A program made the position numbers and the translations under genes. Below the pieces are notes generated by a model. That model was not told the DNA's origin. It searched no databases and saw only the letters and a list, made by a program, of their open reading frames with translations. Positions 13,334 to 24,413 of a DNA stretch of 56,720 bases are shown one piece after another. Origin of the DNA: Acidobacteriota bacterium (GTDB lineage Bacteria > Acidobacteriota > Holophagae > Holophagales > Holophagaceae); the NCBI GenBank assembly GCA_021802985.1, contig JAJZQW010000005.1:1-56720 (forward strand). Direction: 5' to 3'. Positions within the stretch are counted from its first letter, which is position 1, and each line of letters begins with the position of its first letter.

Positions 13334-13933
13334 TCAGGCCTCCACGCCTTCCGGGATCATCTGCCGACCGGCCTCGAAGGCTTCGAGGTTCTTCTCGGTG
13401 ACCCGCGGACCCTTGGCTTCGAAGCGCTGGGCGATGACGTCGCGCCAGATCTTCTCCGCCACGGGGAGGAAGCGGGAGGCCATGCCCAGCAGGGCCATGC
13501 CACCGGCCTGCCGGTGGTTGAGCTTCCGGGCGAGGCTCTCGGTATCCAGCAGGTGCGCCCCGGTCACCGCGCGCAGGGCGGCGTGGACATCCTCCAGGGG
13601 GGGGTAGCCCTCCATGTCCGGCAGAGGTTCCTCGGCCACCACCAGGTGCCCGCTGATGCGGAGCATGGCGACGTAGCGCAGGGCCTCCAGGGGCTCCAGC
13701 GCGATGAGGAGGTCCGCGCAGCCCTCGTCGATCAGCGGCGAGCTGATGGGCTGGTCGGCGTAGCACACCTGGGCATGCACGCTGCCGCCCCGCTGGCTCA
13801 TGCCGTGGATCTCGGACTGGAGGGCGTGGAGGCCGCTCCGGCGGAGGGCCTCCTGAAGGATCTGGGCCAGGGAGAGGACGCCCTGTCCACCCACGCCGCA
13901 CAGGACGACGCCGTGAATGCGGGTCGCGTTCAT
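13334..13933 (-). CDS. iorB: Indolepyruvate:ferredoxin oxidoreductase, beta subunit
   Basis: A 199-residue gamma-type domain of the 2-oxoacid oxidoreductase family, with the typical start VVLCGVGGQGVLSLAQIL and GMSQRGGSVHAQV. With IorA it oxidatively decarboxylates aryl-pyruvates to aryl-acetyl-CoA. Its ATG overlaps the iorA stop (ATGA), so the two are translationally coupled. It carries no cysteine cluster motif. Confidence 0.93.
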   Translation of the reverse strand: MNATRIHGVVLCGVGGQGVLSLAQILQEALRRSGLHALQSEIHGMSQRGGSVHAQVCYADQPISSPLIDEGCADLLIALEPLEALRYVAMLRISGHLVVAEEPLPDMEGYPPLEDVHAALRAVTGAHLLDTESLARKLNHRQAGGMALLGMASRFLPVAEKIWRDVIAQRFEAKGPRVTEKNLEAFEAGRQMIPEGVEA

Positions 13934-15582
13934 GAGCAGACCTCCGCGGAGCAGGTGTGGTGTTCACGGACCGCCCGGTCGTGGTCCTTGAGGAGGCCCC
14001 GGCGCAGGGACTGGATGCACTCCCGCCGGAAGACCACCACCGAGGGGCCCTCATGGCGGAGGGCCGCTTCCAGGGCGGTCACGTTGGCGGCGTGCTGTTT
14101 CGGCAGGGGCGTGAGCACCTGGAGATCGATCTCGGGGATGCCGAGGCCGAGCACCAGGCGTTCGACCTGATCGAGGGCCTGGCTGGGCTGCTGGCCGGTC
14201 ATGCCCACCACGCGGTTGTCCAGCACCAGCACCGTGACGTTGGCCTTGGATTCCGCCGCGGTGAGGAGGGCGGGCAGGCCGCTGTGGGCGAAGGTGGAAT
14301 CGCCGATGACGGCCACCGAGGGCGTCTGACCGGCGAAGGCGGCGCCCACGGCCATGCTGATGCTGGCGCCCATCTCGACCACGGCGTGGATGGCGGCCAT
14401 GGGCTCCTGGGCGGCCAGGGTGTAGCAGCCGATGTCGCCGAAGACCCTGGCCTCGGGTGCGCCGACGTTCCGCAGCGCCTCCTGGAGGGCCTCGTAGGCA
14501 TCCACGTGGCCGCAGCCGTCGCAGAAGCGCGGGGCGCGGACGGGGAGATCCAGCCCGGCCGCGCCCTTGCCGTCCGGCGTGGCCAGCCCGAGGGCGTCCT
14601 TCAGGATGCGGGGGGAGAGCTCACCGGTGCGGGGTACGGCGCCATCCAGGCGGCCGCGGACCTGGGCCCGCTCACGCAACCCGAGGCGCTCCTCCAGCAC
14701 GGGGTAGTCCTCCTCGAAGACCAGGACGTCGTCCACCTGGTCGAGGAAGGCGCGTTCCAGGGCGGGGTCCAGCGGATAGGCGGCCACCTCCAGCCGGGGC
14801 AGGGCGGCCAGCTCCGGGTGCTCGATCAGGAGCTGGCCGAAGTAGGCTCGGCCCAGGCCCGCCAGGACCACGCCGCGGCGGCCTGTTCCGGAAACCAGCC
14901 GGTTCAGGGTGGCGGCCTCCTGGCGCATCCGGGGCTGCTTGGCCAACAGATCCACGTAGCGACGGCGGGCATTGGAGGGGATCAGCACCCAGTCCTGCAC
15001 GCGTGCCTTCGGGGTGAGGCCGATGCCGGCGGGGGCCAGGGCCTCCTGCCGGAGGAAGGGGGCCCGGCAGTGGGCCAGGCGCGTGACGATGCGCACCATC
15101 ACGGGGACCTGGAGGGCCTCGGACAGATCGAAGGCCCGCCGGGTGAAATCGTAGGCCTCCTGGACGGTGCTGGGCTCCAGGCAGGGCAGCCAGGCGAACT
15201 CCGCCAGGCGGCGGCTGTCCTGCTCATTCTGGCTGCTGTGCATGCCCGGATCGTCGGCCACGAGGAGCACCAGGCCCCCCTGGACGCCGGTGAGGGCGGA
15301 ATTGGCGAAGGCGTCCATGGCCACGTTCAAGCCCACATGCTTCATGGTCACCAGGCTGCGGTACCCGGCATAGCTCATGCCCAGGGCCAGATCGTAGGCG
15401 ACCTTCTCATTGGTGGCCCACTGGGCGACGCGGTCCTTCCCATCCTGCTGGATGAGGGCCTCAACGTACTCGAAGCCCTCCGTGGACGGCGTTCCCGGAT
15501 AGCCGAACGCGCCCTTGATGCCAGCGTCGAAGGCGGCCTGTCCGACCGCCTCCACGCCTAGGGCCAGGGTGCTCTGAATCAT
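13930..15582 (-). CDS. iorA: Indolepyruvate:ferredoxin oxidoreductase, alpha subunit lacking the ferredoxin domain
   Basis: A 550-residue thiamine-diphosphate subunit. The pyrimidine domain starts with GAFGYPGTPSTEGFEYVEAL and the TPP domain has CDGCGHVDAY and GDSTFAHSG...DNRVVGMTG. Family members usually run past 600 residues and end in a two-[4Fe-4S] ferredoxin domain. Here the protein stops soon after the TPP domain with a short tail CSAEVCS, and the stop codon overlaps iorB normally, so this is not an obvious frameshift. The ATG at 15582 has GGAGG five bases upstream; a TTG at 15594 is less likely. Two CRP-like sites precede it. Confidence 0.92.
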   Translation of the reverse strand: MIQSTLALGVEAVGQAAFDAGIKGAFGYPGTPSTEGFEYVEALIQQDGKDRVAQWATNEKVAYDLALGMSYAGYRSLVTMKHVGLNVAMDAFANSALTGVQGGLVLLVADDPGMHSSQNEQDSRRLAEFAWLPCLEPSTVQEAYDFTRRAFDLSEALQVPVMVRIVTRLAHCRAPFLRQEALAPAGIGLTPKARVQDWVLIPSNARRRYVDLLAKQPRMRQEAATLNRLVSGTGRRGVVLAGLGRAYFGQLLIEHPELAALPRLEVAAYPLDPALERAFLDQVDDVLVFEEDYPVLEERLGLRERAQVRGRLDGAVPRTGELSPRILKDALGLATPDGKGAAGLDLPVRAPRFCDGCGHVDAYEALQEALRNVGAPEARVFGDIGCYTLAAQEPMAAIHAVVEMGASISMAVGAAFAGQTPSVAVIGDSTFAHSGLPALLTAAESKANVTVLVLDNRVVGMTGQQPSQALDQVERLVLGLGIPEIDLQVLTPLPKQHAANVTALEAALRHEGPSVVVFRRECIQSLRRGLLKDHDRAVREHHTCSAEVCS

Positions 15583-15628
15583 GAATGCCTCCAACGTTTT
15601 CCAAGGCCGAAGTATGCAGGCCGCGCCC

Positions 15629-15840: not shown

Positions 15841-16296
15841 ATGCTGCCACTCTCCCAGACCACCGGCTACGCAGTGCGGGCGCTTCGCTGCCTGGATGAA
15901 CCCGGGGGCCAGCCCATCCTGGTGGAAACCATCGCCGAGTTCACCGGCATCCCGCGCTCCTACCTCTCCAAGCTCATCCACCGGCTGGCGAAACAGGGTC
16001 TGGTGACGGCCCGACGCGGGCACCACGGGGGCGTGGTCCTGGCCAAGCCCGCCCATGAGATCACCCTGGAGGACCTGTCGGTGGCCATCGATGGCTCGGC
16101 CTGGCAGCAGCGCTGCCTGCTGGGCCTGCTGGGATGCACTGCGGAGACCCCCTGCGTGCTCCACGAATACTGGGGCGAGACCCGAGGGGACATCCTCTCC
16201 CATTTGAAAGCCGTCACGCTGGCCGACATGGACCGGCACCACGATCCCGGCGTAGAGCGCTGCCGCGCTGAGCACAAGCTAATGGCCGTCCACTAG
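15841..16296 (+). CDS. Rrf2-family Fe-S regulator (second of three)
   Basis: A 151-residue Rrf2 protein divergent from iorA. It has a winged helix at about 1-68 (LSQTTGYAVRALRCL, SYLSKLIHRL) and a cluster site C92-x6-C99-x5-C105-x2-H108. GGAGG five bases before the ATG fixes the start. Its N-terminus is nearly the same as that of the third Rrf2 protein, with which it converges end to end across seven bases. It probably controls the ior operon or the neighbouring oxidoreductases in response to Fe-S or redox state. Confidence 0.92.
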   Translation: MLPLSQTTGYAVRALRCLDEPGGQPILVETIAEFTGIPRSYLSKLIHRLAKQGLVTARRGHHGGVVLAKPAHEITLEDLSVAIDGSAWQQRCLLGLLGCTAETPCVLHEYWGETRGDILSHLKAVTLADMDRHHDPGVERCRAEHKLMAVH

Positions 16297-16303
16297 GGCT
16301 GGA

Positions 16304-16840
16304 TCAGACCTTCTTGGTGGCGCGTTTCGCCGCGGCAGCCGCGGGCTTCTTGGCCGCGGGTTTGGCCGGCTTCTTGGCCCGGGGCTTGGCCTTCTTCTCG
16401 GGAAGCGCATCCGCCAGCCGCCAGGTTCGACTCTGCTGCTCGAAGGTGCGGATCTCCTCAAGGGTGATGCCCTTCAGGCAGTGGTGGATGTGGTCCCGCT
16501 CGGCGGTCCAGAAGGTGTGGGCGGGACAGGCCCGCTCGTCCGAGCATTCCGAGAAGCCCAGCAGGCACTTGTTCCGCCATTCGGATCCATCCACCGCCTC
16601 GGCGATGAGGTCCAGGGTGATCTCCTTGGCGGCCAGGGCCAGCACCACGCCGCCCTTGTTGCCGCGCTTGGCCATCACCAGGCCCACCTTGGCCAGCTTG
16701 TGGATCATCTTCGACAGATAGGGCCGGGGAAAGCCGGTGCGCGCGGCCACGTCCACCACCAGGGTGGGCTTGCCGCCCGGATCTTCCAGGCAGCTCATGG
16801 CGAGGACCGCGTAGCCGGAGGATTGGGACAAAGGAAGCAT
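16304..16840 (-). CDS. Rrf2-family Fe-S regulator with lysine/alanine-rich tail (third of three)
   Basis: A 178-residue protein (ATG at 16840, aligned to the paralogue's MLPLSQ start; a GTG two codons upstream is possible). Residues 1-135 are a normal Rrf2 regulator with cluster site C92-x6-C99-x5-C105-x2-H108. The last 30 or so residues are a basic tail of KPAKPAAKK-like repeats, similar to histone-H1-like bacterial proteins and unusual for Rrf2 regulators. It lies 107 bp downstream of the dihydroorotate-dehydrogenase-like gene on the same strand and has its own CRP-like site at 16917-16932. Confidence 0.9.
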   Translation of the reverse strand: MLPLSQSSGYAVLAMSCLEDPGGKPTLVVDVAARTGFPRPYLSKMIHKLAKVGLVMAKRGNKGGVVLALAAKEITLDLIAEAVDGSEWRNKCLLGFSECSDERACPAHTFWTAERDHIHHCLKGITLEEIRTFEQQSRTWRLADALPEKKAKPRAKKPAKPAAKKPAAAAAKRATKKV

Positions 16841-16875
16841 GGGCACCTGCGCAGGATGATATGGGGAGGCCGATG

Positions 16876-16947: not shown

Positions 16948-17946
16948 TCAGGGTTTCCAGCCATTGAGGATCCGCATGTAATTCGCGCGCGTAAATGCCT
17001 GGGGATTGGGGCATTTCTGCAGACTCATGCTGCCCAGGGACTGCTGGAGGGATTCGTATTCATGCTCCTCCAGCCATTCGGCCAGCTCGGCCCGGACCTG
17101 GGACAGGCGTTCGGGGCCGTGGAGCAGGAGGGCGGAAACCATCTGTACGGCGCTGGCCCCGGCCATGACGCCCTTGAGGGCATCCAGGCCCGTATGCACC
17201 CCGCCCGTGACGGCCAGGCTGCCCTTGACGTGCCCATGGAGCACGGCCAGCCAACGGAGACGGAGCAGGAGATCCGAGGAGCCGGAGAGCTGGAGGCTCG
17301 GGACGGCCTCCAGGGCCTCCACGTCGATATCAGGCTGGTAGAAGCGGTTGAAGAGCACCAGGCCATCGGCACCGGCTGCCTCCAGCTCCACGGCGAAGTG
17401 GGCCAGCGACGAGAAGAAGGGCGAGAGCTTCACCGCCACGGGGATGTTCACCTCGGATTTCACGGCCCGGACGATATCCAGGGTACGTTTCTCCACGGCC
17501 GCGGCGGATTCGGCCGGATCCGTGGCCAGGTAGTAGACGTTCAGCTCCAGGGCGTCGGCGCCGGCCTCCTCCATGAGCTTCCCGTGGTGCAGCCAGCCGG
17601 CGGGGGTGATGCCGTTCAGGGAGGCGATGACCGGGACGGACACCGCCTTCTTGATGCGCCAGAGCTGTTCGAGGTATTTCTCGGGGCCCAGGCGGAACTC
17701 GTCCGGGTTGGGGAAGTAGGACAGGGCCTCCGCGTTGGACCCCGCGTGCAGCTCCATGTCCATGATGGTGCCCAGCGCTTCGCGGGTGATCTGCTCCTCG
17801 AAAAGCGAGTGCATCACGATGGCCGCGGCGCCCGCATCCTCCAGGCGCTTCACCATGTCCATGTCGTCGACCAGGGGCGAGGCGCCGACCATCAAAGGAT
17901 GCGGAAGCTTGAGGCCAAGGTAGGTGGTGGAGAGATCCATGGTCAT
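16948..17946 (-). CDS. Dihydroorotate dehydrogenase-like FMN protein paired with PFOR
   Basis: A 332-residue TIM-barrel protein of the PyrD superfamily (LPHPLMVGASPLVDD near the start, ALELNVYYLATDP, VAVKLSPFFSS, GGVHTGLDALKGVMAG). These non-biosynthetic PyrD-like proteins recur next to pyruvate:ferredoxin oxidoreductases. Their reaction is not established, but a flavin redox or electron-transfer role is plausible. The start overlaps the PFOR stop by four bases (ATGA), so the pair is translationally coupled. Confidence 0.9.
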   Translation of the reverse strand: MTMDLSTTYLGLKLPHPLMVGASPLVDDMDMVKRLEDAGAAAIVMHSLFEEQITREALGTIMDMELHAGSNAEALSYFPNPDEFRLGPEKYLEQLWRIKKAVSVPVIASLNGITPAGWLHHGKLMEEAGADALELNVYYLATDPAESAAAVEKRTLDIVRAVKSEVNIPVAVKLSPFFSSLAHFAVELEAAGADGLVLFNRFYQPDIDVEALEAVPSLQLSGSSDLLLRLRWLAVLHGHVKGSLAVTGGVHTGLDALKGVMAGASAVQMVSALLLHGPERLSQVRAELAEWLEEHEYESLQQSLGSMSLQKCPNPQAFTRANYMRILNGWKP

Positions 17947-20900
17947 TCTCCTTTGGCTTCCTGGCCCTTGGCGCCGACCGAGAGCTTGGCGAGTTGCTCG
18001 TAGACGGAGTAGCGGTTCGTGGTCTCGCGCTGGGCGGCCTCGAGCAGCTGCTTGAAGTGCTCGGGGTTCTGCTGCTCGACCATGCGGTAGCGCGTCTCGT
18101 TGCGGACGTACTGACCCAAGGGAATCTTCGGGGCCGGAGAGTCCATCTGCAGCGGCACTTCGCCCTGGTCGAGGCGGCGGGGATCGAAGCGGAAGAGCGG
18201 CCAGTGGCCGGAATCCACGGCCAGCTTCTGCTGTTCGGCGCCGAGGGACAGGTCGTAGCCGTGGGCGATGCAGTGGCTGTAGGCCAGGATGAGGCTGGGG
18301 CCGGGATAGGACTCGGCTTCCTGGAAGGCCTTCACGGTCTGGGCGTCCCGGGCACCGAAGGCCACCTTGGCGACGTAGATGCCGCCGTAGGTCATGGCGA
18401 TCATGCTCAGGTCCTTCTTGGGCAGGCTCTTGCCGGCGATGGCGAACTTGGCGCTGGCACCCATGGGCGTGGACTTCGAGGCCTGGCCGCCGGTGTTGGA
18501 GTAGACCTCCGTGTCGAGCACCAGCACGTTCACGTTGCGGCCGGAGGCAAGGACGTGGTCCAGGCCGCCGTAGCCGATGTCATAGGCCCAGCCGTCACCG
18601 CCGACGATCCAGATGCTCTTGTCCACCAGGTAGTCAGCGAGGTCGTTCAGGATCCGGGCCTCGGGATCAGCCAGGGCCACCAGCTTCTGCCGGAGGGCCA
18701 GGACCCGTTCGCGCTGGGCCTTGATGCCGGCCTCCGTGGCCTGGTTCGCGGTGGCGAGGCCGGCCACCAGCTCATCCCCGAGGCTGGGCGCCAGGCGGTG
18801 GAGCAGCTCCAGGGCGAATTCCTGGTGCTTGTCCACGGAGAGGCGCATGCCCAGGCCGAATTCCGCGTTGTCCTCGAAGAGGCTGTTGGCCCAGGCGGGG
18901 CCGCGGCCATCCTTGTTCACGGTGTAGGGCGTGGTGGGCAGGTTGCCGCCGTAGATGCTGGAGCAGCCCGTGGCATTGGCGATGAGGGTGCGGTCGCCGA
19001 AGAGCTGGGTGAGCAGCTTGAGGTAGGGCGTTTCGCCGCAGCCCGAGCAGGCGCCGCTGTATTCGAAGAGGGGCTCAAGGAACTGGGAGCCCTTCACGTC
19101 GAGCTTGACGGTGGTGCGATCCACTTCGGGCAGGTCGAGGAAGAAGCGGTAGTTGGCGGCCTCGGGCTCGCGGAGCGGAGCCTGGTCCACCATGTCGATG
19201 GCCTTGTGCTTGGGATTGCTCTTGTCCTTGACTGGGCAGACCGCCACGCAGAGCATGCAGCCGGTGCAGTCCTCGGGGGCCACCTGGAGGGTGTATTTCT
19301 GGCCCTTGTACTCGGCCCCCTTGTAGTCCACGGACTTGAAGGTGGCGGGGGCGTCCGAGAGCTCGGAGGGATCGTAGACCTTGGCGCGGATGGCGGCGTG
19401 GGGACAGGCCATCACGCACTTGTTGCACTGGATGCAGATGCCCGAATCCCACGCGGGGATTTCCAGGGCGATGTTGCGCTTCTCCCACTGGGTGGTGCCC
19501 AGGGGCCAGGTGCCATCCACGGGGAAGGCGCTGACGGGGAGCAGGTCGCCCTTGCCCTCCATCATCACGGCCGTGACGCGCTGGACGAAGTCGGGAGCCT
19601 CGGCGCTGACCGTGGGGGGCATCACCCGCAGCGCGCTGACGGTACCCGGCACCTTCACCTCGTAGAGGTGGGCCAGGGTGTGGTCCACGGCGGCGAAGTT
19701 CTGCTTCACGACCGCGTCGCCCTTCTTGCCATAGGTCTTCTTGATGGCCTTCTTGATCTGCTCGATGGCCTCCTCGCGGGGCAGCACACCGGAGATGGCG
19801 AAGAAGCAGGTCTGCATGATCGTGTTGATGCGCACGCCCATGCCCGTGGCCTTGGCCACATCGTAGGCGTCGATCACGAAGAACTTCAGCTTCTTGTCGA
19901 CGATGGACTGCTGGACCTCCCGGGGGAGGGAGTCCCACACCTGGTCCGCGCCGTGGGGCGTGTTCAGCAGGAAGGTGGCGCCGGGACCGGCGGCCTCGAG
20001 CATGTCGTACTTGTCGAGAAAGCTGGTCTGGTGGCAGGCGATGAAGTTCGCCTTGGTCACCAGGTAGGCGCTGCGGATGGGTCGGGGCCCGAAGCGCAGA
20101 TGGCTGATGGTGATGGCGCCGGACTTCTTGGAGTCATAGACGAAGTAGCCCTGGCCGTAGTTGGAGGTCTCCTCGGCGATGATCTTGATGGAGTTCTTGT
20201 TCGCGCCCACCGTGCCATCCGCGCCCAGGCCGAAGAAGAGGGCGCGGGTGACATCCGCCGGTTCCACGTCGAAGGCGGGGTCGTAGGTCAGCGAGCTGTG
20301 GCTAATATCGTCCACGATGCCCACGGTGAAGTGGTTCTTCGGGTGGGCCAGGGCCAGGTTGTCGAAGACCGCCTTGACCATGGCCGGCGTGAACTCCTTG
20401 GAGGAAAGGCCGTACCGGCCGCCCACGACCACGGGATCGAGGGTGGTGTGCCCTTCCTCGCGGCCCTGGCGCAGGGCGGCGATCACATCCAGGTGCAGGG
20501 GATCCGCGGGGGCGCCGGGCTCCTTGCAGCGGTCCAGCACGGCCAGCTTCTTGACGGAGGCGGGCAGGGCGCGGACGAATTCCGCGATGGCGAGGGGCCG
20601 GTAGAGGTGGACCTTGAGGACGCCCACCTTCTCGTTCTGCTTCTGGGCCCATTCCACGTATTCGTGGGTGGTATCGCAGCCCGACCCCATGATGACCAGC
20701 ACGCGCTCGGCCTCCGGATGGCCGAAGTAGTCGTAGAGCCGGTACTGGCGGCCGGTGAGCTGGGCGAAACGATCCATCTCCTGCTGCACGATGGCGGGGA
20801 AGGCCTCGTAGTAGGGCGTGCAGGCCTCGCGGGCCTGGAAGAAGGTGTCGGGATTCTGAGCCGTGCCCCGCAGGACCGGATGATCTGGCGTGAGCGCCAT

Positions 20901-21530
20901 CTTCCGGAAGGAGGCCACCAGTTCATCGGGAACCATGACCTTGAGGTCCTCGTCGGTCAGTTCCTCGATCTTGGCGATCTCGTGGCTGGTGCGGAAGCCA
21001 TCGAAGAAGTGCAGGATGGGCACCCGGCCCCGGAGCGTGGCGGCGTGCGCGATGGCGGCGAAGTCATGGGCCTGCTGCACGCTGACCGAGGACAGCATGG
21101 AGAACCCGGTCGGCCGGCAGGACATCACGTCCGAGTGGTCGCCGAAGATGCTCAGGGCATGCGTGGCCAGGGTGCGTGCGGTCACGTGCATGCAGAAGGG
21201 CGTCAGCTCCCCGGCGATCTTGTACATGTTGGGGATCATCAACAGCAGGCCCTGGGACGCCGTGAAGGTCGTCGTCAGGCTGCCGGCCTGGAGGGATCCG
21301 TGGACCGCGCCGGCGGCCCCACCCTCGGACTGCATCTCGATGACCGAGGGGATGGTCTTCCAGATGTTGACCTTGCCCTGGGAGCTCCACTCGTCCGCCC
21401 ACTCGCCCATGTTCGAGGAGGGCGTGATCGGGTAGATGGCGATGACCTCGCTGACGCGGTGGGCGACCGAGGCCGTGGCCTCGTTCCCATCCAGGGTGCG
21501 CATGCGTCGGTTGCTCGTGGCTGGGCTCAT
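17943..21530 (-). CDS. nifJ: Pyruvate:ferredoxin (flavodoxin) oxidoreductase
   Basis: A 1195-residue single-chain PFOR that splits pyruvate with CoA into acetyl-CoA, CO2 and two low-potential electrons. Domain order is standard. The pyrimidine-binding N-terminus (TLDGNEATASVAHRVSE, YPITPSSNMGEWAD) is followed by the gamma-like domain (FFGLGADGTVGANKNSIKI). Next come two ferredoxin clusters (CIQCNKCVMACP and CTGCMLCVAVCP), then the TPP domain with its proximal cluster cysteines (CSGCGETPYLKL, GDGWAYDIGYGGLDH, NTGGQASKSTPMG). GGAGGAG precedes the ATG. It lies downstream of the Nfn fusion and upstream of the coupled PyrD-like gene. Confidence 0.97.
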   Translation of the reverse strand: MSPATSNRRMRTLDGNEATASVAHRVSEVIAIYPITPSSNMGEWADEWSSQGKVNIWKTIPSVIEMQSEGGAAGAVHGSLQAGSLTTTFTASQGLLLMIPNMYKIAGELTPFCMHVTARTLATHALSIFGDHSDVMSCRPTGFSMLSSVSVQQAHDFAAIAHAATLRGRVPILHFFDGFRTSHEIAKIEELTDEDLKVMVPDELVASFRKMALTPDHPVLRGTAQNPDTFFQAREACTPYYEAFPAIVQQEMDRFAQLTGRQYRLYDYFGHPEAERVLVIMGSGCDTTHEYVEWAQKQNEKVGVLKVHLYRPLAIAEFVRALPASVKKLAVLDRCKEPGAPADPLHLDVIAALRQGREEGHTTLDPVVVGGRYGLSSKEFTPAMVKAVFDNLALAHPKNHFTVGIVDDISHSSLTYDPAFDVEPADVTRALFFGLGADGTVGANKNSIKIIAEETSNYGQGYFVYDSKKSGAITISHLRFGPRPIRSAYLVTKANFIACHQTSFLDKYDMLEAAGPGATFLLNTPHGADQVWDSLPREVQQSIVDKKLKFFVIDAYDVAKATGMGVRINTIMQTCFFAISGVLPREEAIEQIKKAIKKTYGKKGDAVVKQNFAAVDHTLAHLYEVKVPGTVSALRVMPPTVSAEAPDFVQRVTAVMMEGKGDLLPVSAFPVDGTWPLGTTQWEKRNIALEIPAWDSGICIQCNKCVMACPHAAIRAKVYDPSELSDAPATFKSVDYKGAEYKGQKYTLQVAPEDCTGCMLCVAVCPVKDKSNPKHKAIDMVDQAPLREPEAANYRFFLDLPEVDRTTVKLDVKGSQFLEPLFEYSGACSGCGETPYLKLLTQLFGDRTLIANATGCSSIYGGNLPTTPYTVNKDGRGPAWANSLFEDNAEFGLGMRLSVDKHQEFALELLHRLAPSLGDELVAGLATANQATEAGIKAQRERVLALRQKLVALADPEARILNDLADYLVDKSIWIVGGDGWAYDIGYGGLDHVLASGRNVNVLVLDTEVYSNTGGQASKSTPMGASAKFAIAGKSLPKKDLSMIAMTYGGIYVAKVAFGARDAQTVKAFQEAESYPGPSLILAYSHCIAHGYDLSLGAEQQKLAVDSGHWPLFRFDPRRLDQGEVPLQMDSPAPKIPLGQYVRNETRYRMVEQQNPEHFKQLLEAAQRETTNRYSVYEQLAKLSVGAKGQEAKGE

Positions 21531-21641: not shown

Positions 21642-24413
21642 TCAGGACACGGGGACGGGCTCGCCCATCAGCCGGTGGTGGATGGCCGCCGCCGCACGGC
21701 GGCCCTGGCCCATGGCCAGGATCACGGTGGCGCCGCCAGTGATGACGTCACCGCCGGCGAAGACGCCCGGCAGGGAGGTCTCGCCGGTCTCGTTGTCCAC
21801 CACCACCACGCCGCCCTTGAGGGTCTTGAGGCCCTTGTCGGTCTGGGCGATGAGGGGGTTCACGTCGAAGCCCAGCGCCACCACGAGGGTCTCGCAGGGG
21901 ATCATGATCCGTTCATCGGTCATCTTGGGGCTGCGGCGGCCATCGGGGCCGGGTTCGCCCAGTTCCATGACGGCGCATTCGGCGTGGGTCATCCAGCCCT
22001 TCTCGTTGCCGAGGAGCTGCACGGGGGTGGTGAGGAACTTGAACTCCACGCCCTCTTCCATGGCGTGCTCCAGCTCCTCCTTGCGGGCGGTGGACTCCTT
22101 GACGGTGCGGCGGTAGACCACGGTCACATGCTCGGCACCCATGCGGCGGGCCGCGCGGGCGGCGTCCATGGCGGTGTTGCCCGCGCCCACGATGATGACG
22201 TTCTTCCCGACCGTGACGGGGGTGGTGTATTCGGGAAACAGGTCGGCGCGCATGAGGTTGATGCGCGTGAGGAACTCGTTGGCGGTGTAGACGCCCTTAA
22301 ACTCCTCGCCCGGAATGCCCATCATCTTGGGCAGGCCCGCGCCGGTGCCCATGAAGATGGCATCGTTCTCCTTGCGGAGATCCTCGAGGGTCATGCTGCG
22401 GCCCACCAGGGTATTCATGACGAACGTCACGCCCAGGCGGCGCAGGGTGTCCACTTCCTGGTCCACGATCTTGTTGGGCAGGCGGAATTCGGGAATGCCG
22501 TAGAGCATCACGCCGCCCGGCTTGTGGAGGGCGTCATAGACCGTGACCCGGTGCCCCTTCTTGACGAGCTCACCCGCGACGGTGAGGCCCGCGGGACCGG
22601 CCCCGACCACGGCCACGGTCTTCCCGGTGGCCGGCTCGACCGGCGGCAGTTCCTGGGAGCCCAGCATGCTGTCGCTGGCGAACCGCTCCAGGCGCCCGAT
22701 GGAGACGGGCAGGCCCTTGATGCCCACCACGCACTTGATCTCGCACTGCTTCTCCTGGGGGCAGACGCGGCCGCAGACCGAGCCCAGCGAGGAGCTCTGC
22801 TTGATGACCCGTGCGGCGGCCTGGGGATCGTCGTTGACGATCTGCTGCAGGAAGGCCGGGATGTCGATGCTCACCGGGCAGCCCTCGATGCAGGCCGGGT
22901 GCTTGCACATGATGCAGCGGGCCGCCTCGAGTTTCGCCTGCTCGGGCGAGAGGCCCAGGCTGACCTCGTCGAAGTTGCACACGCGCAGCTCCGGCGGCTG
23001 GCAGGCCATCTCCTGGCGAGGGATCTTCATCTTCTGGCTGGGCTTGATGGCCTTCAGGTCGAGGTTCTTCCAGTCCAGGTCCGTGACGGGCTCATTGAGG
23101 TACTTGGTGTAGTCCACGGGGCCAGTGGCGGCCATCCGGCCGATCTTGCACTCGCTGGGGTCGCACTGCTCTTCCGCCTTGTACCAGTCCGAGCGCATGC
23201 GGAGCATGTTGAAGTCCACCTTGTGCCCGTCGAAGTCAGGGCCGTCGAAGCAGGCGAACTTGGTCTCGCCCCCCACGGAGACGCGGCAGCCGCCGCACAT
23301 GCCCGTGCCGTCCACCATGAGGGCGTTGAGGCTCACCAGGGTGAAGATGCCGTGGGGCTTCGTCAGGTCCGAGACCGCCCGCATCATGGGCAGGGGGCCC
23401 ACAGCCACCACCTCAGCGATGGGTTCGCGGGCGATGATGTCCTTGAGGGCGTCGGTGACGAGGCCCTTCCGGCCCAGGGTGCCGTCATCGGTGGTGACGA
23501 TCAGTTCCGCGGAGGCCGCGCCGAGCTCCTCCGTGAGCAGCACGCGCTCCTTGCTGCGGCCGCCCAGGATCGTGATGACCCGGCGGCCCTGGGCATGGAG
23601 TTCCTCGGCTGCGGGCAGGATGGCCGCGGAACCGTAGCCGCCGGCCATGAGGACGATGGTGCCCGTTTCCACCAGCTCGGTGGGGGTGCCCATGGGACCC
23701 GCCACGGCAAAGAGCCGGTCGCCGGCGCTGAGGCGGCCCATGGCCTTCGTGGTGGCGCCCACCTCCTGCATGATGAAGTGGATGTAGCCCTTCCGCGCGT
23801 CGCCGCCCGCCAGGGTGAGGGGGATGCGCTCGCTCTCGGGGAAGGGGGCGACCATGAAGAACTGGCCGGGCTTGCGGCCGCGGGCCACCTGGGGGGCCTG
23901 CACGATGAAGGACCAGGTCTCAGGGGCGATGAGCTTCTTCTCCAGGATCAGGTAGCCGTCCTGGGTCTCGGCGTCGGAGGCGTAGAGGGACTTGCCCTTG
24001 AGAAGGGGCAGCATGAGCTGTTCCTCCGCCTCGATGTGGTCGCGCACCAGGTCCACCAGCCGCTGGCCCAGCAGGGTGAGGGACTTGGGGGCCCGGGCCT
24101 GGCCCTCGTCGATCTCGGAGAGGAGCTGGAGGGTGAGATCCCACATCTGGCGGTGGTCCTCGAAGAGCCGCTGGTAGAGGGCCTCGGCCCCGATCTCCTC
24201 AAGCAGGGGGAACAGCTCGCGCTCTTCGGCCTCGTTGTGGGGCCGGAGCACCTCGTAGACCCAGCGGGCCCCCTCATCGACCCCCTTCCAGTCGCCTGCC
24301 CCCAGGGCCGTGGCCATGCGGGTGAGCCGCTCCATGGCTTCGGCATGGGTGGCGTGCCAGGTCGGGGTCGGCAGGTTCTCAGGGGTGAGCAGGTGGGTGG
24401 CCGAGTCGGACAT
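21642..24413 (-). CDS. Hemerythrin-NfnA-NfnB fusion (NADH-dependent ferredoxin:NADP+ oxidoreductase)
   Basis: A 923-residue three-part protein. Residues about 15-145 form a hemerythrin-type HHE domain with the diiron-type motifs HNEAEERELFPLLE, EDHRQ and DHIEAEEQLMLPLL. Residues about 160-420 are NfnA-like, with a flavin/NAD reductase fold and a [2Fe-2S] site of three Cys plus a nearby Asp (VDGTGMCGGCRV, FACFDG). The rest is NfnB/GltA-like, with CIMCKHPACIEGCP and CGRVCPQEKQCEIKC clusters and two nucleotide folds (VAVVGAGPAGLTVAG, VIIVGAGNTAMDAA). Nfn makes NADPH by electron bifurcation or confurcation from NADH and ferredoxin. Nfn subunits are usually separate, and a hemerythrin front end is unexpected. 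GGAGG five bases before the ATG at 24413 sets the start. Confidence 0.88.
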   Translation of the reverse strand: MSDSATHLLTPENLPTPTWHATHAEAMERLTRMATALGAGDWKGVDEGARWVYEVLRPHNEAEERELFPLLEEIGAEALYQRLFEDHRQMWDLTLQLLSEIDEGQARAPKSLTLLGQRLVDLVRDHIEAEEQLMLPLLKGKSLYASDAETQDGYLILEKKLIAPETWSFIVQAPQVARGRKPGQFFMVAPFPESERIPLTLAGGDARKGYIHFIMQEVGATTKAMGRLSAGDRLFAVAGPMGTPTELVETGTIVLMAGGYGSAAILPAAEELHAQGRRVITILGGRSKERVLLTEELGAASAELIVTTDDGTLGRKGLVTDALKDIIAREPIAEVVAVGPLPMMRAVSDLTKPHGIFTLVSLNALMVDGTGMCGGCRVSVGGETKFACFDGPDFDGHKVDFNMLRMRSDWYKAEEQCDPSECKIGRMAATGPVDYTKYLNEPVTDLDWKNLDLKAIKPSQKMKIPRQEMACQPPELRVCNFDEVSLGLSPEQAKLEAARCIMCKHPACIEGCPVSIDIPAFLQQIVNDDPQAAARVIKQSSSLGSVCGRVCPQEKQCEIKCVVGIKGLPVSIGRLERFASDSMLGSQELPPVEPATGKTVAVVGAGPAGLTVAGELVKKGHRVTVYDALHKPGGVMLYGIPEFRLPNKIVDQEVDTLRRLGVTFVMNTLVGRSMTLEDLRKENDAIFMGTGAGLPKMMGIPGEEFKGVYTANEFLTRINLMRADLFPEYTTPVTVGKNVIIVGAGNTAMDAARAARRMGAEHVTVVYRRTVKESTARKEELEHAMEEGVEFKFLTTPVQLLGNEKGWMTHAECAVMELGEPGPDGRRSPKMTDERIMIPCETLVVALGFDVNPLIAQTDKGLKTLKGGVVVVDNETGETSLPGVFAGGDVITGGATVILAMGQGRRAAAAIHHRLMGEPVPVS

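What the first reader, a model, noticed from the sequence alone, without database searches (positions are those of the whole stretch)
21642..24413. Hemerythrin domain fused to a single-chain NfnA-NfnB transhydrogenase
Three modules are visible in one uninterrupted frame: an HHE diiron domain, NfnA with its Asp/Cys3-type [2Fe-2S] motif, and NfnB. Nfn is an oxygen-sensitive bifurcating enzyme. A diiron O2-binding domain on its front could shield it, sense O2 or NO, or reduce O2 with its electrons. I know of no described enzyme with this order.
Basis: partly seen in the sequence, partly recalled or inferred. Interest (0 to 1): 0.78.

Follow-up and report, generated by a model that had tools for sequence, protein, structure and literature searches.

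The report
Transhydrogenase with a built-in diiron domain
In Geothrix and related bacteria one protein chain joins a predicted electron-sharing metabolic enzyme (Nfn) to a predicted two-iron domain that has been kept in most genomes of the family and would likely pass the enzyme's electrons on to harmful oxidants such as peroxide, oxygen or nitric oxide.

Summary
Window 24413-21642 (-) is one 923-residue frame: an N-terminal HHE (hemerythrin-like) domain, a short tether, and a complete single-chain NfnAB of NfnI type. It is no assembly join: 93 database proteins share the junction. The six predicted diiron ligands (H23, H59, E63, H87, H126, E130) are conserved with one exception, and the domain is under purifying selection. 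Single-chain NfnAB is common; the HHE front was found only in the family of Geothrix (57 of 77 genomes). The tree fits one gain and at least three losses. In one relative a foreign split nfnA-nfnB stands at this place and the HHE module survives as a free gene 51 bases downstream, ligands intact. Elsewhere NfnAB is fused at its other end to a rubrerythrin-like domain. The ligand set is that of YtfE, not of O2-carrying hemerythrin. I infer that NfnAB feeds electrons to the diiron site, which reduces an oxidant beside the enzyme; O2/peroxide is ranked just above NO/nitrite. No chemistry was tested. New variant of a known kind: a YtfE-type site, whose reductant is unknown, with a built-in candidate donor.

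The parts
21642..24413 (-). HHE-NfnAB fusion gene, 923 aa, one open frame
24000..24359 (-). HHE (hemerythrin-like) domain, residues 19-138; predicted ligands H23, H59, E63, H87, H126, E130; four-helix bundle in the model
   Evidence: Pfam PF01814; ligands; model helices 19-39, 42-66, 77-100, 109-137
23955..23999 (-). tether between HHE and NfnA, residues 139-153; 140-146 below pLDDT 50 in the model
23154..23954 (-). NfnA module (FAD/NAD-binding, PyrK-like), residues 154-420
   Evidence: 5jca_S 258 bits, 4ylf_A 204 bits
23250..23312 (-). [2Fe-2S] ligand motif D368, C373, C376, C388 (Asp/Cys3), in 99 of 99 NfnAB rows
21666..23030 (-). NfnB module (two [4Fe-4S] motifs, FAD/NADP-binding), residues 462-916
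22731..22916 (-). [4Fe-4S] ligand region C500, C503, C508, C512 and C547, C551, E554, C557, C561 (CPQE motif)
   Evidence: eight of these nine in 99 of 99 rows, C500 in 98
17943..21530 (-). single-chain pyruvate:ferredoxin oxidoreductase, 111 bases downstream of the fusion gene
   Evidence: TIGR02176 1772 bits; same order in 6 of 6 Geothrix loci examined
16948..17946 (-). dihydroorotate-dehydrogenase-like protein (PRK07565), overlaps the PFOR stop by 4 bases
16304..16846 (-). Rrf2-family regulator with a three-Cys motif, 101 bases further on
   Evidence: TIGR00738 over its cut-off, IscR and NsrR models below theirs; PF02082; found in 6 of 6 Geothrix loci examined
15841..16296 (+). second, divergent Rrf2-family regulator
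13334..15594 (-). indolepyruvate:ferredoxin oxidoreductase-like alpha (13930-15594) and beta (13334-13933) genes
   Evidence: TIGR03336 and PRK06853 models, below their equivalog cut-offs

Best explanation
One 923-residue chain joins an HHE domain predicted to bind two irons to a complete NfnAB predicted to be a NADH/NADPH/ferredoxin transhydrogenase, and the diiron site likely takes electrons from NfnAB to reduce a small oxidant beside this cluster-rich enzyme. Shown by sequence: one frame, all Fe-S motifs of NfnI, conserved diiron ligands, purifying selection on the HHE part, a pattern of one gain with at least three losses, a free HHE gene beside a foreign NfnAB in one relative, and a neighbourhood of ferredoxin oxidoreductases and Rrf2 regulators in Geothrix. 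Inferred: that the site holds two irons, that NfnAB is its electron donor (through the [2Fe-2S] cluster or FAD of NfnA, to which it is tethered), and that the acceptor is a small oxidant. I commit to H2O2/O2 as first acceptor and rank NO/nitrite close behind. The effect would be an electron safety valve: when oxidant reaches the cell, NAD(P)H or reduced ferredoxin is spent on the spot, protecting the Fe-S clusters of Nfn and, in Geothrix, of the PFOR encoded next door.
For: (1) Ligands: five of six in 94 of 94 rows and H23 in 93 with one gap; HHE median dN/dS 0.20 over 20 pairs. (2) Tree of 99 NfnAB rows built without the HHE columns: all 60 HHE-bearing rows lie in one 78-row clade, with 18 HHE-less rows nested at three places (quick tree, SH-aLRT only). 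(3) Trans retention: in G085 a foreign split nfnA-nfnB (48% identity to the fusion's NfnAB) is followed 51 bases downstream by a 167-aa HHE gene that keeps all ligands and ends in GAGYLML, like the NfnA start of the fusions. It is closest to the HHE of the same-genus fusions (46-53%; a second copy in G086 42%) and lies beside pilT- and TypA-like genes, as HHE-NfnAB does in L140 and L143 of that genus (pilT and TypA there recognised by eye). (4) Convergence: NfnAB with a C-terminal rubredoxin-like and rubrerythrin-like segment in L111, L153, L155, L157. (5) The three genomes with HHE-less NfnAB of this lineage belong to a genus (g18) in which 0 of 4 genomes have a heme-copper oxidase-family gene, against 56 of 57 genomes with the fusion. 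(6) Precedents: a [FeFe] hydrogenase-rubrerythrin fusion couples H2 oxidation to H2O2 reduction (PMC11926857, passages); a flavodiiron-rubredoxin-NADH oxidoreductase fusion is a one-chain NADH oxidase (PMC9364112, abstract). (7) For YtfE, which has the same ligand set, the reductant is open and 'a ferredoxin and associated reductase' was suggested (PMC9052748, passage).
Against: No activity was measured. The ligand set points to NO/nitrite chemistry as much as to O2/peroxide. Evidence (5) is one evolutionary event in a genus that also lost most hemerythrins (0-1 copies against a median of 10), so it may reflect general reduction; three of those four genomes keep cytochrome bd, so O2 exposure may remain; and the three g9 genomes, with neither NfnAB nor any hemerythrin, keep PF00115. 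The genomes of the other two loss lineages (P0101; P0107, P0109, P0110) were not examined. PF00115 also holds NO reductases (recalled), so the lost gene need not be an O2 reductase. P0102 lost two ligands. The trans case is one MAG with 8% contamination, and another relative (G088) has a foreign nfnA-nfnB with no HHE gene beside it.
Confidence: 0.42

Rival explanations
1. YtfE-like nitrosative chemistry: the site reduces NO or nitrite, or helps repair nitrosylated clusters of Nfn in cis, with NfnAB as its reductant. Same electron route as the best explanation, other substrate.
For: Ligand set H / HxxxE / H / HxxxE equals YtfE H84, H129-E133, H160, H204-E208; the only solved diiron relatives found by sequence are YtfE, weakly (E 0.06); three-Cys Rrf2 regulator beside the operon in Geothrix; the HHE-less genus g18 lacks PF00115, a family that includes NO reductases (recalled), but keeps cytochrome bd in 3 of 4 genomes.
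Against: YtfE's ScdA_N domain with its Cys pair is absent from the fusion, and the genome has a separate ScdA_N-HHE protein; the convergent partner of NfnAB is rubrerythrin-like, a peroxidase family.
Confidence: 0.27
2. Sensor or gate: O2, NO or redox state read at the diiron site changes the conformation of NfnAB and switches its transhydrogenase or bifurcation activity, with no catalytic turnover at the diiron site.
For: Hemerythrin domains are sensors in chemoreceptors and c-di-GMP enzymes (PMC9388753, passages); the domain sits at the NfnA end; short tether of nearly constant length.
Against: The tether is disordered in the model; retention of the module as a free gene beside a foreign NfnAB is harder to square with allostery inside one chain.
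Confidence: 0.2
3. Iron sensing, iron store or a passive sink with no electron input.
For: Four-His two-Glu HHE domains also serve as iron sensors (recalled: FBXL5).
Against: Does not explain why NfnAB was the partner, nor the convergent rubrerythrin-like fusion.
Confidence: 0.07
4. Artefact or vestige: a chance join that is drifting.
For: HHE evolves faster than NfnAB (mean identity to the window 64% against 80-83%); at least three losses and one decayed copy.
Against: Conserved ligands, dN/dS about 0.2, presence in 57 of 77 family genomes.
Confidence: 0.04

Closest known systems
NfnI / NfnAB transhydrogenase (Pyrococcus furiosus 5jca, Thermotoga maritima 4ylf)
   Different: Two separate chains there, no HHE domain
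Single-chain NfnAB (NCBIfam PRK12778)
   Same: Residues 155-916 of the fusion
   Different: No diiron domain; the fusion scores below the equivalog cut-off
NfnAB-rubrerythrin/ferritin fusion (NCBIfam PRK12775; L111, L153, L155, L157)
   Same: A diiron-type helical domain fused to single-chain NfnAB
   Different: Another diiron family (rubrerythrin), C-terminal, with a rubredoxin-like segment between
YtfE / RIC proteins
   Same: Diiron ligand pattern H, HxxxE, H, HxxxE in a PF01814 domain
   Different: Have an ScdA_N domain and no reductase; their reductant is open
Mycobacterial hemerythrin-like protein Mka HLP (PMC8913304, abstract and passages)
   Same: Hemerythrin-like site with four His and two Glu; weak catalase, NO peroxidase
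   Different: Has an added Tyr ligand and a fifth helix; free-standing, no reductase
[FeFe] hydrogenase-rubrerythrin HydR (PMC11926857)
   Same: Oxidant-reducing diiron domain fused to a low-potential redox enzyme
   Different: Electron source is H2; diiron domain is rubrerythrin
Trichomonas flavodiiron-rubredoxin-NROR fusion (PMC9364112)
   Same: One chain that takes NADH electrons to a diiron site
   Different: Flavodiiron protein, shown to reduce O2 to water
DcrH-Hr and other hemerythrin-domain sensors
   Same: Hemerythrin fold (2awc is Foldseek rank 5 for the HHE model, but E 0.26)
   Different: O2-carrier ligand set; fused to signalling domains

Membership tests
NfnAB (NfnI type) | NfnA module with FAD/NAD domain and Asp/Cys3 [2Fe-2S] motif | tested here: met
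   (D368, C373, C376, C388 in 99 of 99 rows)
NfnAB (NfnI type) | NfnB module with two [4Fe-4S] motifs including CPQE, and FAD/NADP domain | tested here: met
NfnAB (NfnI type) | Electron bifurcation between NADPH, NAD+ and ferredoxin | not testable with these tools
   needs purified enzyme
Hemerythrin-like (HHE, PF01814) domain | Score above the Pfam cut-off | tested here: met
   49.7 against 25.3 bits
Hemerythrin-like (HHE, PF01814) domain | Hemerythrin four-helix fold | tested here: inconclusive
Hemerythrin-like (HHE, PF01814) domain | Diiron ligands H, HxxxE, H, HxxxE | tested here: met
O2-carrying hemerythrin | Five His, one Glu, one Asp (fifth His in HxxxH, Asp in HxxxxD; positions recalled) | tested here: not met
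   at 91, where HxxxH needs the second His, W in 94 of 94 rows; in the wider set W in 56 of 60 and no His in the other four; helix 4 has HxxxE; ligand count from the PMC9388753 abstract
RIC / YtfE | N-terminal ScdA_N domain with Cys pair | tested here: not met
   no PF04405 in the fusion; the same model does find it elsewhere in this genome
RIC / YtfE | Four-His two-Glu diiron ligand pattern | tested here: met
NfnAB-ferritin fusion (PRK12775) | C-terminal rubrerythrin/ferritin domain | tested here: not met
   the fusion ends at NfnB; model positions 2-752 of 1006 matched

The most novel reading that the evidence does not exclude
A new kind of self-sufficient diiron reductase: an electron-bifurcating flavoenzyme with a third, diiron exit, so that NADPH, NADH or reduced ferredoxin can be sent either to each other or to an oxidant. 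It would be the natural reductase partner that YtfE-type diiron sites lack, invented once in the Geothrix family and paralleled elsewhere by NfnAB-rubrerythrin fusions.
Probability: 0.33. Interest if true: 0.8.

Novelty: new variant of a known kind. Interest (0 to 1): 0.6.

Why it matters
Nfn sets the balance between NADH, NADPH and ferredoxin in many anaerobes. A diiron-type domain kept on it by selection, absent where a genus also lost its heme-copper oxidase-family genes, and kept as a free gene beside a foreign NfnAB in one relative suggests that this hub enzyme is tied to oxidant defence. It also makes an open question testable: what reduces YtfE-type diiron sites? Here a candidate donor is in the same chain, and the family offers natural controls (HHE-less, ligand-poor and trans versions).

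Tried and rejected
Assembly join or frameshift: rejected. A seeming natural split of HHE-NfnA and NfnB in G080: a frame change within the coding stretch when compared with P0103, probably assembly; described only. HHE-NfnAB outside the family: none found. In an even draw of 396 genomes of the phylum, with the two best candidates per genome scored, 72 had a match at E <= 1e-190; the 33 that start at or before query residue 37 are all in the window's family, and the matches in other families start at residue 140 or later. That threshold would miss short or split versions. A further protein search from the deep-branching P0113 gave 15 hits, all of them HHE fusions already seen. One HHE fusion comes from a MAG titled Bacillota (L039), but its contig length (12,991) equals that of the G077 contig, placed in the Geothrix family, so the title is probably wrong. 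Distant independent fusions could be missed by all these searches. P0094 (1,591 aa, HHE plus unrelated domains) was left out of the alignments as a likely chimaera.

Identity of the other PF00115 genes: the 740-820 aa frames look like quinol NO reductases by length (recalled); three of them, scanned whole or in part, matched no NCBIfam model, while the fourth piece scanned was CtaD-like, below its cut-off, so this stays open. Structure: the pdb and pdb_via searches with the whole model were filled by NfnB and related flavoenzymes; the HHE alone was folded from one sequence (pLDDT 77) and its PDB matches do not stand above generic helical bundles. Of eight NfnAB regions with long frames fetched from other families, three had a rubrerythrin-like C-terminus, three were split nfnA and nfnB genes, and two had an N-terminal frame extension in which I saw no HHE motif by eye; two of the three rubrerythrin-like ones lie just under the Pfam cut-off. 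The Fisher test treats genomes as independent and is not used as evidence. Paper searches: hemerythrin + NfnAB, 0 papers; hemerythrin + electron bifurcation, 5; Geothrix + hemerythrin, 1; hemerythrin + fused + domain architecture + NADH, 2; Nfn + bifurcat + ferritin + NADPH + oxygen, 2; hemerythrin + transhydrogenase, 6. From titles and abstract starts none is about such a fusion; I did not read them all. The library holds open-licence papers only; the 2018 review of the hemerythrin superfamily was not held.
Full report

The HHE domain. The model shows a four-helix bundle (19-39, 42-66, 77-100, 109-137) at high confidence and a stretch of the tether (140-146) below pLDDT 50, so the domain is probably mobile. 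Of the six expected diiron ligands, H59, E63, H87, H126 and E130 are kept in 94 of 94 rows and H23 in 93 with one gap. In the wider 60-row set one row, P0102, has N at 23 and Q at 130. At 91, where O2 carriers have a further His, W stands in 94 of 94 rows and in 56 of 60 of the wider set, with no His in the other four; helix 4 has HxxxE. H20 (48 of 60) and E64 (58 of 60) might add a ligand. This is the pattern of E. coli YtfE (H84; H129, E133; H160; H204, E208; passages of PMC9268430), not the five-His Glu Asp set of O2-carrying hemerythrins (abstract of PMC9388753). The fusion lacks ScdA_N, so it is not a RIC protein; the genome has a separate ScdA_N-HHE protein. By sequence, the only diiron proteins among solved structures are weak YtfE matches (E 0.06). 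Against 20 congeners the HHE part has median dN/dS 0.20 (maximum 0.32), NfnA 0.13 and NfnB 0.10.

How widespread. A search with residues 1-153 over 5.8 billion proteins returned 94 hits; 93 are HHE-NfnAB proteins or fragments of them, and the 94th is a likely chimaera. Many have no name; the names given are mostly Geothrix species, Mesoterricola, Holophaga and Holophagaceae or Acidobacteria MAGs, with a few odd MAG labels. Contig lengths tie the window's genus g1 to Geothrix (for example 170,427 bases for G. fermentans and 719,764 for G. oryzisoli). Among 77 genomes of the family, 57 carry the HHE fused to NfnA, some on contig fragments, and one (G085) carries it as a free gene (the 57 are listed). 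Three (G089, G090, G091, genus g18) carry NfnAB of this lineage without HHE, and one (G088) has only a foreign split nfnA-nfnB. The other 15 have only 5'-truncated pieces (G016, G060) or no match at 1e-100; several of these are incomplete MAGs. In 396 genomes drawn from the phylum, no HHE-NfnAB was seen outside this family. Single-chain NfnAB without HHE is common: 39 of the best 80 named loci of a capped scan encode one chain of 735-830 aa.

History. A tree of 99 NfnAB rows built without the HHE columns puts all 60 HHE-bearing rows (P0102 included) in one clade of 78 rows (SH-aLRT 100). Its 18 HHE-less rows sit at three nested places: a 14-row group (100), a 3-row group (97) and P0101. Four changes are needed, most simply one gain and three losses (quick LG+G4 tree, no bootstraps, several long outgroup branches).

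Three natural experiments. First, in genus g18, whose NfnAB lacks the HHE, 0 of 4 genomes have a heme-copper oxidase-family gene (PF00115), against 56 of 57 genomes with the fusion. Hemerythrin domains are also nearly gone there (1, 1, 0, 0 against a median of 10, range 4-23), while cytochrome bd remains in 3 of 4. This is one event and may be part of general reduction; and the three small g9 genomes, without NfnAB or any hemerythrin, keep PF00115. Second, in G085 a neighbourhood of pilT- and TypA-like genes, which in L140 and L143 of the same genus holds HHE-NfnAB, instead holds a foreign nfnA and nfnB as two genes (48% identity). They are followed 51 bases downstream by a 167-aa HHE gene (PF01814 47 bits) with all ligands that ends in GAGYLML, like the NfnA start of the fusions; no NfnA follows it, and the contig ends 124 bases after its stop. 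Its best relatives are the HHE domains of same-genus fusions (46-53%). The simplest reading is that the NfnAB body was replaced and the HHE module kept. The MAG has 8% contamination, so this needs a second genome; in G088 a foreign nfnA-nfnB has no HHE gene beside it. Third, outside the family, including other Acidobacteriota, NfnAB carries a C-terminal rubredoxin-like and rubrerythrin-like extension (L111, L153, L155, L157; PF02915 at 31.0, 21.5, 22.3 and 26.6 bits against a cut-off of 22.8). L111 matches PRK12775 end to end at 1500 bits, below that model's cut-off of 1895. So two different diiron-type domains were joined to opposite ends of NfnAB.

Neighbourhood. On the same strand follow a single-chain PFOR, a dihydroorotate-dehydrogenase-like protein whose start overlaps the PFOR stop by 4 bases, and an Rrf2 regulator with three Cys; then a divergent second Rrf2 gene and indolepyruvate oxidoreductase-like genes. 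Fusion, PFOR, DHOD-like and the Rrf2 pair are present in 6 of 6 Geothrix loci examined, out of 47 g1 genomes held; in G068 the order is PFOR, DHOD-like, fusion; in the 11 other loci of this lineage and the two foreign ones no PFOR lies within the piece fetched. The link to PFOR is thus not general.

Mechanism. NfnAB moves electrons between NADPH, NADH and ferredoxin (established for NfnI). YtfE's diiron site accepts electrons (potentials +110 and +260 mV) and reacts with nitrite and NO; its reductant is open, and a ferredoxin and associated reductase was suggested (PMC9052748, passages). A mycobacterial four-His two-Glu (plus Tyr) protein is a weak catalase and NO peroxidase (PMC8913304, abstract and passages). 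Rubrerythrin fused to a hydrogenase gives H2-driven peroxide reduction (PMC11926857, passages), and a flavodiiron protein fused to its NADH reductase gives a one-chain oxidase (PMC9364112, abstract). I infer the same logic here: NfnAB feeds the tethered diiron site, which reduces an oxidant near O2-labile clusters. The acceptor is not settled. The convergent rubrerythrin-like fusion favours peroxide/O2; the ligand set and the Rrf2 neighbours favour NO/nitrite. I rank peroxide/O2 first by a small margin. Gating of Nfn by the diiron state is the main non-catalytic rival.

Verdict. It is a new variant of a known kind.

Noticed in passing
L150:6313-9132 (G085): Foreign split nfnA-nfnB followed by a free-standing HHE gene that ends like the NfnA start; looks like a fusion whose NfnAB body was replaced.
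   Followed up: partly
L153, L155, L157, L111: NfnAB with a C-terminal rubredoxin-like plus rubrerythrin-like extension, in Acidobacteriota and one MAG titled Actinobacteria; two of four lie just under the Pfam cut-off.
   Followed up: partly
L141:7358-10150 (G086): Second HHE-NfnAB paralogue in the same genome, in a row with genes that look like thiolase, 3-hydroxyacyl-CoA dehydrogenase and CoA-transferase (recognised by eye, not scanned).
   Followed up: no
window 15841-16296 (+) and 16304-16846 (-): Pair of divergent Rrf2 regulators at the end of the operon, present in 6 of 6 Geothrix loci examined.
   Followed up: partly
window 16948-17946: Dihydroorotate-dehydrogenase-like PRK07565 protein overlapping the PFOR gene; its role beside PFOR is unknown to me.
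   Followed up: no
P0102: HHE domain with H23 to N and E130 to Q: a natural ligand-poor version.
   Followed up: partly
L139:6654-7382 and L151:6564-7271: Crp-type regulators near nfn genes of different origin (two examples scanned).
   Followed up: no
L107:7862-12427: 1522-residue frame with about 700 residues before NfnAB and no Pfam match there; may be a spurious extension.
   Followed up: no
L039 (JAJTBC010000318.1): MAG titled Bacillota carries an HHE-NfnAB of the Geothrix family type; probably mislabelled.
   Followed up: partly
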